Source: a bacterium HR11 (GTDB lineage Bacteria > Acidobacteriota > HRBIN11). Taken from it: 64,000 nt of DNA. Location: the NCBI GenBank assembly GCA_002898535.1, contig BEHN01000011.1, positions 1 through 64,000 of the forward strand, given 5' to 3'. The notes below the pieces were generated by a model. It was not told the origin of the DNA, searched no databases, and worked only from the letters and a program-made list of their open reading frames with translations. Positions 24,436 to 62,440 of the stretch are shown piece by piece. How positions within the stretch are numbered: the first letter of the stretch is position 1; each line of letters opens with the position of its first letter. The position numbers and the translations under genes were made by a program.

Positions 24436-24664
24436 AGGGGGAGTATGTCAAGTAGGTAGGTCGGCAGATAGGCAGGTGGGCAGATGGGCAGGTGGGCAGG
24501 TCGGCAGATAGGGCCACGGGACGGGAAAAGCCGTCACCGAGGCCCCAAGCCCCTCGGGATCCCGTATCTCGCATCTCGTATCCCGTATCCTTGAAAAATC
24601 GTGCTTCCCGGGCGACGGGAAAAGTCGATCGGACACCATTCTCCCGAACCGAACGGCTCTGTTA
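24436..24664. repeat. Composite hairpin-array element E1, partial (microsatellite and right module only)
   Basis: A GGCAGGTCGGCAGAT-type microsatellite at about 24448-24512 is followed by cgtatctcgcatctcgtatc-type sequence and then the right module (cttgaaaaatcgtgcttccc to the terminal ccgaacggctctgtta, ending at 24664). The terminal TTA is shared with the left end of E2, so the two abut. I see no left module or hairpins. Confidence 0.6.
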
Positions 24665-25210
24665 TCAGAGCGGTTCGGTTGGGAGAAATGCGGCTCCCAT
24701 CAGGGGAAAACGGTGGCCCGGCGATCTCGATTGTTCAAGCTTGTTAAGGCTGACACCGCCATGACTGGCGGTGTTCGGAGGGGCTGACACCGCCATGACT
24801 GGCGGTGTTGGGAGGGGATATGACACCGCCATGACTGGCGGTGTTCGGAGGGGATGACGCCGCCATCACTGGCGGTGTTTGGAGGGGATTGACACCGCCA
24901 TGACGGGCGGTGTTCAGAGGGGATCGACCCGGCCAGGACGGGCGGTGCATGAGGAGGACACCCGCAGGACGGCGGGCTCTCTACGGAAGGCACCGGCATG
25001 ACGGCCGGTGTCCCGAGGATAGGCACCAGTCGCCCGACCTGTCGACTGCCCATCTGCCGACCTGCCGACCTGCCCATCTGCCCATCTGCCAAATGCCTAT
25101 CTGCCGACTGCCGACCTGCCCATCGGCCGAATGCTTGAAAAATCGTCTTTCCCGGAGGGTCGGAAAAGTTGAATTTATGAGGCTTTTCACGGACCGAACC
25201 GCTCTGATAA
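24662..25210 (+). mobile_element. Composite hairpin-array element E2 (MITE-like, 549 bp)
   Basis: The ends are perfect 17-bp inverted repeats: ttatcagagcggttcgg at 24662-24678 and its complement at 25194-25210. Inside are a left module ending ttcaagcttgttaagg (to about 24749), then five hairpins of one type (acaccgcc, 6-nt loop, ggcggtgt; period about 33-36 nt), then three divergent hairpins (ccggcc, cccgc and ccggc types), the line agtcgcccgacc, a CCTGCCCATCTG-type microsatellite (about 25036-25130) and a right module starting gcttgaaaaatcgtctttcc. No open reading frame of substance is present, so if mobile it depends on a transposase elsewhere. Confidence 0.7.
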
Positions 25211-25482
25211 GTGAGGGATGGCCCCCCATAGGCGATAGACGCCAGCATGACGGCTGGCGTTGGGATCGATGGACAGAGGGGGTCAGGGGCAGGCCCGGTG
25301 CTTGCTCATCCGGGGGCAACCCGGGGGTTGTCCTTACTTGCATCCAGCATCCTGCGTTTTGTATCCTGCATGCCCGATGGGCGGGTTTGGAGACGCCCGC
25401 ATCACGGCGGGCGCTCGGGGTATTCTTTGGACGCCGCCATGACGGGCGGCGTTCCGAGAGATGCGACTACGAGCCATGACCC
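25211..25482. repeat. Isolated hairpin units and family A/I repeats upstream of the wzy-TPR gene
   Basis: Three hairpins of the same design as in the array elements: gacgccagc-atgacg-gctggcgt (about 25234), acgcccgc-atcacg-gcgggcg (about 25398) and gacgccgcc-atgacg-ggcggcgt (about 25430). A family I tract (catccagcatcctgcg, about 25340-25372) lies between, and family A (gagccatgacccatgagc) starts at about 25470. No gene is visible here. Confidence 0.65.
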
Positions 25483-30069: not shown

Positions 30070-30076
30070 CCCCTAT

Positions 30077-30534
30077 GATAGCAGAGCCGTTCGGTTGGGA
30101 GAAATGCTGTTCCCATCCGGGAAAACGGTGGCCCGGCGATCTCGATTTTTCAAGCTTGTTAAGGCTGACACCGCCATGACGGGCGGTGTTCAGAGGGGAT
30201 TGACACCGCCATGACTGGCGGTGTTGGGAGGGGATTGACACCGCCATCACTGGCGGTGTTCAGAGGGGATCGACCCGGCCAGGACGGGCGGTGCATGAGG
30301 AGGACGCCCGCAGGACGGCGGGCTCTCTACGGAAGCCACCGGTATGACGGCCGGTGTCCCGAGGATAGACGCCCGTCGCCCGACCGGCCCATCGGCCGAC
30401 CTGCCGACTACCCATCTGCCCATCTGCCAACTGCCCATCTGCCCATCTGCCAAATGCTTGAAACATCGCGCTTCCATGGAGGTGCCCTTTCCGCTCTCCA
30501 TCTCACTTCTCACCGCCCGAACGGCTTTGTTATC
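30077..30534 (+). mobile_element. Composite hairpin-array element E4 (458 bp)
   Basis: Terminal inverted repeats gatagcagagccgttcgg (30077-30094) and its near-complement (30517-30534) match at 16 of 18 positions. The left module runs to about 30163 (caagcttgttaagg), followed by three acaccgcc/ggcggtgt hairpins, then the same three divergent hairpins and gtcgcccgacc line as in E2, a microsatellite (about 30386-30455) and the right module (gcttgaaacatcgcgcttcc). The left end begins eight bases after the tRNA-Leu 3' end. Confidence 0.7.
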
Positions 30535-32626: not shown

Positions 32627-34627
32627 ATGGAAGGTCTTGCTCCCAACCCGATGCCCCGCACCCAACACTTGACATCCGAGCCCCCATACCCATTCTCCAT
32701 CTTATCTACCCGACGCACCCATTTCGTAGTGACCCACCCTGTTACAGCGTATCTCACGACGCCGGCCGTCACGCCGGCGGCTTCCATCCGAACGCCGCCG
32801 GTCACGGCGGTGCCCCAAGGCGATACCGAGTGCCCGCAGTCATGCGGGCGTCTGAAAATACGCATATCGGGTTTGCATCTCTTGCCCCTCCTTCTCCTCC
32901 TGGCCTGTGCCGTCCGACCGGGCCCGGCGCAGGTGACCCTCGAGCCGGTCGTCGAATGGACGGCACCCGGCGATGTGGCCGAACTCCGATGGACCGGCAA
33001 CGGCTGGGCCGCCTGGCTTCCTGCCGAGGGCGCCGTCGTCTACTGGCCGGCCGGCGCCCCGAAGGACGCCTCACCGGTCCGATGGTCGGACGAACGCTGG
33101 CAAAGCCCCCGCGCTTGGGCCGTCACGGACGGGACGGTCTGGCTGGCCACGCCGACCGAGCTTCTCGCATTTTCGGAGGGATCGTCGTCCCCTTCGACCC
33201 GAATGGCGTGGCCTGAGGGCGCGACCGTATGGGACGACGGCCGCCGTCTGTGGGTCGGCCATACGTCGGACGACGTCCGCATTTGCTCGCCGGTCGCGGC
33301 GTCCGCGACCCCTGCATGTTGGTCATTCCCCGTAACGGCGGTCCGACCCGATTTCAGCCTGCCCGCCTGGGACTGGTCGCCGCCGTGGTGGTGTGGTCTA
33401 CGGGTAGGGGAGAGCGACGCCGAAAAGGCTCGGCCGGCCGAGATCTTTTGCCAGCGGGGGCTACGGATGCACCTACCTGCGGTGGCGACAGACCCGGGAG
33501 GAGCCCGGATCTCGAGGCCCGGGTCCCGGCCAGAGGCTCAGGGTCCACAGGACCTCACTCCAGGCCCTCAGTTGGCCTCCGCCAGGCGCGAGGTGCGCTG
33601 GGTCACCCCGACCGTCTCTCTTGGGGAAACTCTGGAGGCGATGCCCCCGTCTCCCGTGTTCAGCCGGATGAACACAGTGTCGAATCCCGTAAACACCCCG
33701 AGGGGGCGGGCCTACCCCTGGGAGGTGGTCCAAAACGGGATGGGAAGCCGTTGGGTCCCGCAGTGGCATGAAGTTTGTAGAAGGGGCTCGGACGTTCTGC
33801 CGACGGACGGCAGGTGCGCGCGTCGTGACGTCCGATGGGGCAGATGGCCGTACGCCGAGAACCCCTGCGAGGGTGGGTGGGCGGCGTCTACCCTGCGGTG
33901 GTGGGCCAGCGTCTCGGCGGTGGCGGCGGGGGAGGGCCCGCGTGCGAAAGGGCCCCCTCCGTCGATGCGGATGTTCCCCTCCGAGCGCCTGGGAGCGGGG
34001 CCGAGCAGGGCGGGACCCCTTCAGGAATCCCGGCGGCGTCCGAGCGAAGCGGGAACGTCCGAGCCTCCGTCGTGGCGTCGGTCTTTTCGGATCCCGGCCG
34101 GGGCGGACGTCACGGTCCGGCGCATGTGGATCGCCGCGACCGGAGTCTTTGTCTCGACGGGCCGGTGGGCGTGGCTGTGGGACCTTGAAGGGGGCCGTCC
34201 CCGGTGGCGGCTGGACCTGGGGGCCAGCGTGACCGTGCCTCCGGTCCAGACGGCGTGGGGCGTCCTGATCGTCGCCACACGGGGCCTTCTGCTGTATGCC
34301 CTGGATGCTCGCAATGGCAACCGGCTGTGGGTCTTGCCGCTTCGGGCACCGGTCACCCGAATGCGCCTCCTGCAGGATACGGGATGCGAGGGTAGGGGAG
34401 GGACGTCGGCAGGGGTATCGGCGTGGGTCGTCCTCACGTTGATGGATGCGCCGCCGATGATCGTCGACGTCGCGACCGGCAAGACCCTCTGGCAGGCGAC
34501 GGGCTGGACGGCCTGGGACGCCGCCGTGAACGACGACGCAACGGTCGCTTGGGCCGGTGCGGACCGAAAGATTCGAGTCTTCCAGATTCGCCCCCAGCCG
34601 ACCGTCCGTGGGCCCATCCGCCCTTAA
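32627..34627 (+). CDS. Secreted or lipoprotein beta-propeller-like protein; start uncertain
   Basis: The open frame gives 666 residues, but about the first 75 codons run through hairpin repeat DNA (32755-32858) and look non-coding. A signal or lipobox-like segment (LHLLPLLLLLACAV, lipobox LLAC) suggests a start near TTG 32873 or CTG 32852. The mature part has propeller-like strands: TGNGWAAWLPAEGAVVYW, DGRRLWVGHTSDDVRI and, near the end, PQQ-like repeats GLLLYALDARNGNRLWVLPL and IVDVATGKTLWQATGW. The middle (about 270-480) is low-complexity and poorly folded-looking. Function unknown; an envelope location is likely. Confidence 0.6.
   Translation: MEGLAPNPMPRTQHLTSEPPYPFSILSTRRTHFVVTHPVTAYLTTPAVTPAASIRTPPVTAVPQGDTECPQSCGRLKIRISGLHLLPLLLLLACAVRPGPAQVTLEPVVEWTAPGDVAELRWTGNGWAAWLPAEGAVVYWPAGAPKDASPVRWSDERWQSPRAWAVTDGTVWLATPTELLAFSEGSSSPSTRMAWPEGATVWDDGRRLWVGHTSDDVRICSPVAASATPACWSFPVTAVRPDFSLPAWDWSPPWWCGLRVGESDAEKARPAEIFCQRGLRMHLPAVATDPGGARISRPGSRPEAQGPQDLTPGPQLASARREVRWVTPTVSLGETLEAMPPSPVFSRMNTVSNPVNTPRGRAYPWEVVQNGMGSRWVPQWHEVCRRGSDVLPTDGRCARRDVRWGRWPYAENPCEGGWAASTLRWWASVSAVAAGEGPRAKGPPPSMRMFPSERLGAGPSRAGPLQESRRRPSEAGTSEPPSWRRSFRIPAGADVTVRRMWIAATGVFVSTGRWAWLWDLEGGRPRWRLDLGASVTVPPVQTAWGVLIVATRGLLLYALDARNGNRLWVLPLRAPVTRMRLLQDTGCEGRGGTSAGVSAWVVLTLMDAPPMIVDVATGKTLWQATGWTAWDAAVNDDATVAWAGADRKIRVFQIRPQPTVRGPIRP
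32755..32858. repeat. Three hairpin units in reverse orientation
   Basis: gacgccggc-cgtcac-gccggcg, acgccgcc-ggtcac-ggcggtg and tgcccgc-agtcat-gcgggcg follow each other with 10-25-nt linkers, immediately before the signal sequence of the propeller-like protein. Stems differ yet all pair; loops are complements of the ATGAC type. Confidence 0.7.
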
Positions 34628-39331: not shown

Positions 39332-39530
39332 GGTCCCACCTCCAGGCCCAAGTTGAATGAATCGGCAGGTCGGCAGATGGGCAGATAGGCAGTCGGCAGG
39401 TCGGGCAGGAAGCATCCCGGCATCCATCTTCCAAACACCGGCAGTGATGCCGGTGTCATCCTGTCCCGGCGCCGCCCGTCATGGCGGTGGCCACCTCAGG
39501 GAATCGATCGGCAATCGGCAGTCGGCAGGT
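39332..39530. repeat. Microsatellite and hairpin units between thrC and its riboswitch
   Basis: GGCAGGTCGGCAGATGGG units at 39360-39412, hairpins acaccggc-agtgat-gccggtgt (about 39436) and cgccgccc-gtcat-ggcggtg (about 39470), then another short GGCAG tract (about 39510). Neither the left nor the right module of the composite element is present. Confidence 0.7.
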
Positions 39531-39704
39531 CGGGGTCTATCCTCCTGCTCTATGCTCTTTGCCAATAGAAAGCTTCCCCTGAATGACCAAGACTCGACAC
39601 CGATGCCGGGATATCCCAGGACGCGACGTCGGGGGCCGAACGTCGCTCAGGTTCGGGTTTGGCTGTCGTCGACCCGAGGAGGTGTTGCGCGAGGCAACGC
39701 CTGC

Positions 39705-39820
39705 CTCATCTGCCAGGCCGGGTCTCACCCCGGCCTGCGGGAGTTGGCACCGGACGCCCGCGGGCGCGAGCCGGTTGCCGCGGCTTCACAGGGCCCGTTC
39801 CCTCCGCCGCTCTGGATAAG
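39705..39820 (-). promoter_or_regulatory. SAM-I (S-box) riboswitch
   Basis: Read on the minus strand, the 116 nt contain every core block of the class in order: CTTATCCAGAG, GGCGGAGGGA, GGGCCC, TGAAGCC, CGGCAACC, CCGGTGCCAA, CTCCCGCAGG, a GC-rich P4-type stem (GGCCGGG..CCCGGCC) and the closing GATGAG that pairs with CTTATC. SAM-I aptamers switch off methionine and SAM pathway genes when SAM is abundant. A hairpin just downstream (GAGGCA..TGCCTC) could be part of the expression platform by competing for the GATGAGG strand. The nearest gene on this strand is thrC; asd and lysC follow. Confidence 0.92.
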
Positions 39821-39929
39821 ACAGGCCATCCCATGAACCCGACAGGGGGTTATTGTACTGATCGGTAGCGAGAAGTCAAAAACGCCGGGCATCGGAGGCC
39901 TGACGGCGTGACGGGGGTAAGGATTGGCT

Positions 39930-57454: not shown

Positions 57455-57734
57455 CGGTCGGCAGATGGGCAGGTGGGCAGGTGGGCAGTCGGCAGGTCGG
57501 CAGGTGGGCATTTGGCAGGTGGGCAGGTGGGCAGTCGGCAGGTCGGCAGGTGGGCATTTGGCAGGTGGGCAGGTGGGATCCCATCTGAACACCGCCAGTC
57601 ATGGCGGTGTCATCCCCTTTGAACACCGCCAGGGATGGCGGTGTCATCCTTAACAAGCTTGAACAATCGAGGTCGCCGGGCCATCGCTTTCCCGGATGGG
57701 AACCGCATTTCTCCCAACCGAACAGCTCTGATAA
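57455..57734 (-). mobile_element. Composite hairpin-array element E5, reverse orientation
   Basis: Read on the minus strand: left end ttatcagagctgttcgg (57718-57734), left module to caagcttgttaagg (about 57652), two acaccgcc/ggcggtgt hairpins (loops atccct and atgact), then directly a long CCTGCCAAATGCCC-type microsatellite reaching to about 57456. The divergent distal hairpins and the right module are absent. It begins within about ten bases of the cheA stop. From 57735 to 57841 there is a family A tract (57752-57800) and nothing else recognised. Confidence 0.65.
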
Positions 57735-58435: not shown

Positions 58436-58757
58436 GGAGATGGGCAGGTCGGCAGATAGGCAGTCGGCAGATGGATAGATAGGCGGGTCGGCGTCTATCC
58501 TCGAAACACTGGCAGTCATGCCGGTGTCCCCCTGTCCTGGCGCCGCCCGTCATGGCGGCGTCCATCCATCCCAACACCGCCCGTCATGGCGGTGTCATCC
58601 TCATGGAACTGGGAGTTATCCCGGTGTCAACCTCAGGGGCAGGTCGGCAGATGGGCAGGTGGCTGAGAATCCCGTATCTTTGAAAAATCGTGCTTCTCGG
58701 ACGTTGGGAAAGGTCGTCCTGATGCCATCCCCACGAACCGAAGGGCTCCACTCAGAC
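58436..58757. mobile_element. Composite element E6, rearranged copy between cheC and cheD
   Basis: GGCAG-type microsatellite (58415-58495), then reverse hairpins acactggc-agtcat-gccggtgt, cgccgccc-gtcat-ggcggcg, acaccgccc-gtcat-ggcggtg and ctggg-agttat-cccggtg (58503-58630), a second short microsatellite, then the right module in forward sense (tttgaaaaatcgtgcttctc) with a degenerate end cgaaccgaagggctc at about 58733-58748. There is no left module. The right end lies about ten bases from the cheD start codon. Confidence 0.6.
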
Positions 58758-59243: not shown

Positions 59244-59663
59244 GGGTTCGGGCATTCGGCAGGTTGGCAGATAGGCAGTTCGGCAGATAGGCAGGTGGGC
59301 AGTCGGCAGATAGGCAGATGGGCAGTCGGCAGTTCGGCAGGTGGGCCGATGGGCCGGTCGGGCGACGGGCGTCGATCCCCGGCACGCCGGCCTTCATGCC
59401 GGTGCCTTCCTTAGAGAGCCAGCCGTCCTGCGGGCATCATCCTCATGAACCGTCCGTCATGGCCGGGTCAATCCCCTCCGAACACCGCCAGCCATGGCGG
59501 TGTCCATCCCATCTGAACACCGCCCGTCATGGCGGTGTCCATCCCATCTGAACACCGCCAGGGATGGCGGTGTCATCCTTAACAAAGCTTGAACAATCGA
59601 GATCGCTGGACCACCGTTTTCCCTGATGGGAGCACCGTTTCTCCCAATCGAACGGCTCTGTTA
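59244..59663 (-). mobile_element. Composite hairpin-array element E7, reverse orientation
   Basis: Read on the minus strand: end taacagagccgttcgattgg (about 59644-59663), left module to caagctttgttaagg (about 59578), three acaccgcc/ggcggtgt hairpins (loops atccct, atgacg, atggct), the divergent ccggcc, cccgc and ccggc hairpins, the gtcgcccgacc line and a long microsatellite (about 59255-59355). The right module is missing; the element ends at the cheD stop codon. Family F (aattcccggattcccgaact) fills 59715-59750. Confidence 0.65.
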
Positions 59664-59757
59664 CCTTACTACTTCCCGACCTGCCGACCTGCCCATCTGC
59701 CTATCTGCCGACTGCCCATCTGCCGAATTCCCGGATTCCCGAACTGCCGGATCTCTT

Positions 59758-61074: not shown

Positions 61075-61086
61075 GACCCACCTCCT

Positions 61087-61421
61087 TAACAGAGCCGTTC
61101 GGTTGGGAGAAATGCGGCTCCCATCCGGGAAAACGATGGCCCGGCCATCTCGATTTTTCAAGCTTCCTCCGGATGACCCGGCCATGACGGACGGTTCATG
61201 AGGATGATGCCCGCAGGACGGCGGGCTCTTTACGGAAGCCACCGGCATGACGGCCGGTGTTCCGGGGATAGACGCCCGTCGCCCGACCGGCCCATCTGCC
61301 CACCTGCCGACCTGCCCATCTGCCCACCTGCCCATCTGCCGACTGCCTGAAACATCGTGCTTTCGTAGAGGTGCCCTTTCCACTCTCCATCGCACTTCTC
61401 ACCTCCCGAGTGGCTCTGTTA
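61087..61421 (+). mobile_element. Composite hairpin-array element E8 (335 bp)
   Basis: Ends taacagagccgttcgg (61087-61102) and ccgagtggctctgtta (61406-61421) are inverted repeats matching at 14 of 16 positions, the outer ten perfectly. Order inside: left module to about 61170, no acaccgcc hairpin, the divergent series (ccggcc-atgacg, gcccgc-aggacg-gcgggc, caccggc-atgacg-gccggtg), the gtcgcccgacc line, a microsatellite (about 61290-61345) and the right module tgcctgaaacatcgtgcttt. It lies between the ribosome binding site of the permease and the stop codon of the next gene. Confidence 0.75.
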
Positions 61422-62267: not shown

Positions 62268-62384
62268 CGCTTCACCCCGAGCGATCTGGCAGGTGGGCAG
62301 TAAGGCCCTAAGGCAGATGGAGAGGTGGGGGCAACCACGGGGGTTGGCCCCACCAAGGGCCGACGCTCCGTCTCTCAGGACGCC

Positions 62385-62440
62385 TGGAGTCATCCCGGCG
62401 TCCGAATGCCGAGCGCCCGCAGTCATGCGGGTGTCCCCCG
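62385..62440. repeat. Two hairpin units upstream of the M16 peptidase
   Basis: gacgcctggagtcatcccgg-cgtc and gcgcccgc-agtcat-gcgggtgt, in reverse orientation, without the left or right module. Otherwise 62268-62564 shows only a trace of GGCAG microsatellite at about 62287. Confidence 0.6.

What the first reader, a model, noticed from the sequence alone, without database searches (positions are those of the whole stretch)
24750..25460. Hairpins with compensating stem changes and a conserved ATGAC loop
Units follow 5'-AC(A/G)CC-NNC-ATGAC(T/G)-GNN-GG(C/T)GT-3'. Inner stem variants GCC/GGC, GGC/GCC, AGC/GCT and CGC/GCG all keep pairing, while the six-base loop stays close to ATGACT or ATGACG. Examples: about 24752, 24990, 25234, 25398, 25430, and in reverse 32758, 39436, 58503 and 62410. 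Paired change with a fixed loop suggests selection for a folded RNA, a cruciform, or a protein recognising the loop while reading the stem as a two-base code.
Basis: partly seen in the sequence, partly recalled or inferred. Interest (0 to 1): 0.75.

Follow-up and report, generated by a model that had tools for sequence, protein, structure and literature searches.

The report
Genus-specific tandem DNA hairpin repeats
Short hairpin-forming repeats with a fixed loop and changeable but still matching stems are scattered, often in tandem, between the genes of one genus of Acidobacteriota; they look like a REP-like family of spreading DNA repeats rather than a functional RNA or a code.

Summary
The unit CC-NN-C-ATGAC(G/T)-G-NN-GG occurs 17 times in the window (0.09 expected), and a 14-base version 258 times in the 2.99-Mb genome against 8 for the reversed pattern. 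Units lie between genes, always head to tail, about 34 bp apart, often inside a larger mosaic repeat. The strict motif is confined to the genus: 78, 61 and 5 copies in three species, and one stray match in 393 other genomes of the phylum.

Stem pair 2 covaries above a tree-based null; pairs 3 and 6 are borderline.

An RNA role is not supported. G-T and A-C mismatches are equally common (48 vs 55), orientation to genes is not clearly biased, and arrays sit at different syntenic sites in two species.

Best reading: a REP-like, non-autonomous DNA repeat family whose hairpins matter while copies are made and then decay neutrally. It lacks the GTAG/CGTC tags, the head-to-head dimers and a linked RAYT transposase. 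The mobiliser is unknown.

The parts
24753..24774 (+). A unit, ACACCGCC-ATGACT-GGCGGTGT
   Evidence: folds as a 9-bp DNA hairpin, z -6.0
24787..24808 (+). A unit, same sequence
24823..24844 (+). A unit, same sequence
24857..24878 (+). A unit with loop ATCACT
24892..24913 (+). A unit with loop ATGACG
24919..24950 (+). B block, degenerate hairpin CCGGCCAGGACGGGCGG
   Evidence: repeated block, 33 copies in 1.65 Mb of G000, none in the G001 pieces
24958..24979 (+). C unit, CCCGC-AGGACG-GCGGG
   Evidence: 29 copies in G000 pieces
24990..25011 (+). D unit, GCACCGGC-ATGACG-GCCGGTGT
24640..25045 (+). mosaic repeat element P2-S-A(n)-B-C-D-E carrying the hairpins
   Evidence: block order repeated across 1.65 Mb of G000; RNA fold z -6.3
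25239..25260 (+). unit with AGC/GCT stem, loop ATGACG
   Evidence: DNA fold z -4.4
25393..25414 (+). unit with CGC/GCG stem, loop ATCACG
25431..25452 (+). unit with GCC/GGC stem, loop ATGACG
30168..30357 (+). second copy of the array (A, A, A, B, C, D) downstream of a tRNA gene
32759..32851 (-). three-hairpin array, loops GTGACG, GTGACC, ATGACT
39435..39490 (-). two-hairpin array
57589..57644 (-). two-hairpin array
58506..58595 (-). three-hairpin array
59517..59573 (-). A units of an element copy with B, C, D and S blocks
61207..61260 (+). C and D units of an element copy
62380..62434 (-). two-hairpin array, stems GGG/CCA (one mismatch) and CGC/GCG

Best explanation
These are REP-like dispersed DNA repeats: 22-base hairpins (8-9 bp stem, loop T-G-A-C closed by A and T/G) in head-to-tail arrays of about 34 bp period. 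They spread between genes as one- to several-hairpin blocks and expand or shrink by slippage between units. SHOWN: hairpin potential, enrichment, intergenic location, single orientation, period, restriction to the genus, and different array positions at syntenic sites. INFERRED: pairing and loop are selected, or copied preferentially, at the DNA level during spread. The likeliest reason is that an enzyme acting on folded single-stranded DNA reads the loop and needs an intact stem, as group-3 REP transposases do. Finished copies then decay neutrally. That enzyme has not been found.
For: 17 strict units in the window vs 0.09 expected; 258 vs 8 reversed genome-wide. 96 of 103 placed units are intergenic by a simple gene caller, although about 16% of the sequence is intergenic. 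30 of 30 neighbouring unit pairs share orientation, modal spacing 34. 18 of 23 syntenic gaps have hairpins in only one of G000 and G001; the sample is biased because most G001 pieces were chosen for carrying units. In two of these (G001 contigs C324 and C113) G000 is nearly seamless where G001 carries 245-317 bp with hairpins. Covariation at pair 2 above a tree-based null. G-T and A-C mismatches equal, as expected if copies decay without strand-specific selection. Genus-restricted. Chimeric stems such as CCCGC...GCCGG fit recombination between adjacent units. Published precedent: group-3 TnpAREP enzymes strongly select loop bases and lose cleavage when the stem carries a mismatch (PMC8266576).
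Against: No mobilising enzyme is linked. G000 has no Y1 transposase. G001's intact RAYT is flanked by different REPs, and their number follows the RAYT (45 copies in G001, 2 in G000, 1 in G002) while the ATGAC units do not. No target-site duplication or clean element boundary was found; intergenic regions here turn over so fast that differences could be losses or rearrangements. The larger mosaic block in G000 could spread by recombination rather than transposition.
Confidence: 0.62

Rival explanations
1. Functional RNA: the units are transcribed as hairpins whose ATGAC loop binds a protein or another RNA, like a multi-hairpin sponge or a stabilising 3' end.
For: Covariation; strong RNA fold of the element, z -6.3; unit C's CAGGACGG resembles the CsrA-type GGA loop (from memory); weak excess in gene direction, 30 vs 17 arrays.
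Against: G-T is not favoured over A-C in stems (48:55, p=0.55; 43:38). Arrays occur in divergent, convergent and codirectional gaps near expectation. Sites are not conserved between species. Nothing in the element region reaches an Rfam gathering score. No T run after the hairpin arrays themselves.
Confidence: 0.13
2. Neutral DNA process only: quasi-palindrome correction (template switching between arms) and spread of a few old unit types produce matching stems without any selection for hairpins.
For: G-T and A-C equal; two types make up 68% of distinct units; chimeric units show recombination.
Against: Arm correction does not explain the fixed, non-palindromic loop. One linker slot holds four complementary stem types, although that table was filtered on pairing.
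Confidence: 0.18
3. Double-stranded protein-binding sites, an operator or nucleoid-protein array read by a dimer.
For: Regular about 34-bp period and palindromic half sites.
Against: An operator would hold half-site letters fixed; here letters change while complementarity is kept, and the centre ATGAC is not symmetric.
Confidence: 0.05

Closest known systems
REP / BIME sequences (enterobacterial and Pseudomonas REPs, GTAG superfamily)
   Same: Short palindromic, intergenic, tens to hundreds of copies, varied but complementary stems, clustered, restricted to related species (PMC3733652).
   Different: No GTAG tag at the hairpin foot in any consensus seen; strictly head-to-tail arrays instead of mainly head-to-head dimers; conserved six-base loop; no linked RAYT.
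CGTC-tagged REPs
   Same: Stems of 8-9 bp, alternative complementary stems, no dedicated transposase (PMC3733652). The loop ATGACG read in reverse is CGTCAT, which contains CGTC.
   Different: There CGTC is an unpaired terminal tag and loops are 4-5 bases; here the letters lie in the loop. HH dimers predominate there, none here.
Group-3 TnpAREP/REP systems (Stenotrophomonas, Marinomonas)
   Same: Mechanistic model: the enzyme selects specific loop bases and needs a stem without mismatches on single-stranded DNA (PMC8266576).
   Different: No such enzyme is linked to the ATGAC units.
RAYT and its GCAGACG..CGTCTGC REPs in the sister species G001
   Same: Same genus and same kind of intergenic palindromes.
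   Different: Different sequence; copy number follows the RAYT (45/2/1) while ATGAC units do not.

Membership tests
REP in the broad sense (short, palindromic, extragenic, repeated) | Palindromic and able to form a stem-loop | tested here: met
REP in the broad sense (short, palindromic, extragenic, repeated) | Extragenic | tested here: met
   96 of 103 placed units
REP in the broad sense (short, palindromic, extragenic, repeated) | Many similar copies per genome | tested here: met
   78 strict, 258 loose matches
REP in the broad sense (short, palindromic, extragenic, repeated) | Usually transcribed | not testable with these tools
   no transcript data
GTAG REP superfamily | GTAG-like unpaired tetranucleotide at the hairpin foot | tested here: not met
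   unit flanks read GGATG, GGAAG, CAGGG before and TCGGAGG, TCCGA after
GTAG REP superfamily | RAYT gene flanked by the units | tested here: not met
   none in G000; the RAYT locus of G001 and the broken copy in G002 have no ATGAC unit
CGTC REP superfamily | Terminal unpaired CGTC, 4-5 base loop, HH dimers | tested here: not met
   six-base loop; 30 of 30 neighbours head to tail
Rfam structured RNA | Match at gathering score | tested here: not met
   only SAM riboswitch and tRNA in the window, elsewhere; ar14 below gathering on the opposite strand
CRISPR array | Constant repeats with unique long spacers | tested here: not met
   linkers of about 12 bases, repeated
Intrinsic terminator | Hairpin followed by a T run | tested here: not met
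   no T run after the ATGAC hairpins

The most novel reading that the evidence does not exclude
The hairpins are substrates of an unrecognised enzyme that acts on folded single-stranded DNA, reads the TGAC loop and ignores stem letters, and that drives a head-to-tail hairpin repeat family without GTAG or Y1 chemistry.
Probability: 0.15. Interest if true: 0.7.

Novelty: new variant of a known kind. Interest (0 to 1): 0.4.

Why it matters
Whether tagless REP-like families have their own mobiliser is an open question; the same is stated for CGTC REPs (PMC3733652). Here three sister species differ in array content, one has an intact RAYT with its own REPs as an internal control, and the loop is fixed while stems vary, so loop-reading can be tested directly. 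It also gives a simple test (G-T vs A-C mismatch balance) that separates covariation of DNA repeats from covariation of RNA, a possible source of false RNA predictions.

Tried and rejected
RAYT as mobiliser: absent in G000, different REPs in G001. Rfam: no match in the element region at gathering score; ar14 at 32.6 bits (gathering 58.8), antisense, taken as chance. Phages and plasmids: no match to the element. Replication-strand bias by GC skew: 31 vs 39, none. A first permissive unit scan gave mostly noise and was replaced by stricter definitions. Pair 6 in the outer-stem-supported set is inflated because that set was chosen on outer pairs; in the unfiltered set its E is 0.31.

Full report
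WHAT IS THERE. The window is on contig C11 of a 2.99-Mb genome. Among hairpins with at least 7 of 8 pairs around a six-base loop in 1.65 Mb, ATGACG and ATGACT are the two commonest loops. Related loops ATCACT, ATCCCT, AGGACG and GTCACC occur in the same arrays. The hairpin folds as single-stranded DNA on either strand, usually as 8-9 bp.

ARCHITECTURE. Neighbouring units are always in the same orientation (30 of 30) with a modal spacing of 34 bp. In G000 many lie in a mosaic repeat whose blocks keep one order, P2-S-A(0-5)-B-C-D-E plus a CTGCC-rich tract. The window holds several copies: 24640-25045, 30073-30451, 59266-59701 and 61086-61340. Blocks S, B and C are nearly specific to G000 (42, 33 and 29 hits vs 1, 0 and 0 in the G001 pieces), while a module of two hairpins joined by AGGACAGGG is shared with G001 (234 kb of G001 chosen for carrying units). 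Chimeric stems such as CCCGC...GCCGG look like recombination between adjacent units.

WHERE IT LIES. 96 of 103 placed units are intergenic by a simple home-made gene caller. Counted by array, codirectional, divergent and convergent gaps are near the length expectation (47/17/6 vs 41.7/20.4/7.9), with a non-significant excess in the gene direction (30 vs 17, p=0.08) and no link to GC skew. With a stricter pattern the copies number 78, 61 and 5 in the three species of the genus, 0 in the two other class members and 1 in the other 391 genomes of the phylum. In 23 syntenic gaps with hairpins, 18 have them in one species only (the sample is biased because most G001 pieces were picked for carrying units). 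Some G000 gaps are nearly seamless where G001 carries an array.

COVARIATION. In 184 distinct units collected without any demand on pairs 2 and 3, both pairs are Watson-Crick in 146. On a FastTree of the units, with substitutions re-scattered over branches as the null, the top three column pairs are stem pairs 2, 6 and 3 (E=0, 0.02, 0.06). Using linkers alone for the tree gives E=0, 0.07, 0.10. In the unfiltered set of 218, pairs 2, 3 and 6 give 0, 0.15 and 0.31. Pair 2 is therefore firm; 3 and 6 are borderline, and pair 6 in the filtered set is biased by how the set was chosen. The unit tree rests on 38 columns at most, so this is a home-made approximation of R-scape. Two stem types make up 125 of 184 distinct units; stems go largely with the slot in the array. 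But one slot (preceded by AGGACAGGG) carries CCGGC, CCGGG, CCAGC and CCGCC, each with its complement (units filtered on pairing).

RNA OR DNA. If one strand were selected as RNA, C-to-T changes in a G-C pair (leaving G-T) should survive better than G-to-A changes (leaving A-C), while in duplex DNA the two are equivalent. They are equal: 43 vs 38 and 48 vs 55, p=0.55. With no positional conservation, no T run after the hairpins and no Rfam match at gathering score in the element, an RNA role is unlikely. The equality also says that finished copies are not under strong strand-specific selection of any kind.

MOBILISER. G000 has no Y1 transposase; the same search rings in E. coli. G001 has an intact RAYT (NF047646, 108 bits, cut-off 80) flanked by its own REPs and by no ATGAC unit. 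G002 has a copy broken by stop codons, also without ATGAC units. The RAYT's own REP has 45, 2 and 1 copies in G001, G000 and G002, so it follows the enzyme; the ATGAC family does not. The ATGAC family is therefore probably not the RAYT's.

MECHANISM. Fixed loop plus free but paired stem is what a loop-reading enzyme acting on folded single-stranded DNA would leave; group-3 TnpAREP enzymes behave so in vitro (PMC8266576). This step is inferred. Slippage and recombination between units would explain the tandem arrays and chimeras. Whether spread is by transposition or by recombination of larger blocks is not settled.

MEMBERSHIP. It meets the broad REP definition except transcription, which is untested. 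It fails the GTAG and CGTC tests. It is best called a REP-like, untagged, head-to-tail family: a new variant of a known kind.

Noticed in passing
window 24590-24640 and 25134-25222; many loci in G000: A second intergenic repeat of about 240 bp with inverted ends (blocks P1 and Q1/Q2 around a CTGCC tract), about 100 end-blocks in 1.65 Mb; looks like a MITE-type element.
   Followed up: partly
window 24463-24520, 25045-25125, 57460-57540 and elsewhere: Low-complexity tracts of CTGCCGACCTGCCCATCTGCC type, about 270 places in 1.65 Mb, at ends of the repeats and alone.
   Followed up: no
L245 1285-1812 (G001 contig C103): Intact RAYT (NF047646) flanked by inverted clusters of GCAGACGTCCCCGTCTGC-type REPs; that REP is 45-fold in G001 but 2-fold and 1-fold in the two sister species without an intact RAYT.
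   Followed up: yes
L248 (G002 contig C115): RAYT copy broken by in-frame stops, without ATGAC units.
   Followed up: partly
window 39703-39822 (-): SAM riboswitch, 74.4 bits.
   Followed up: no
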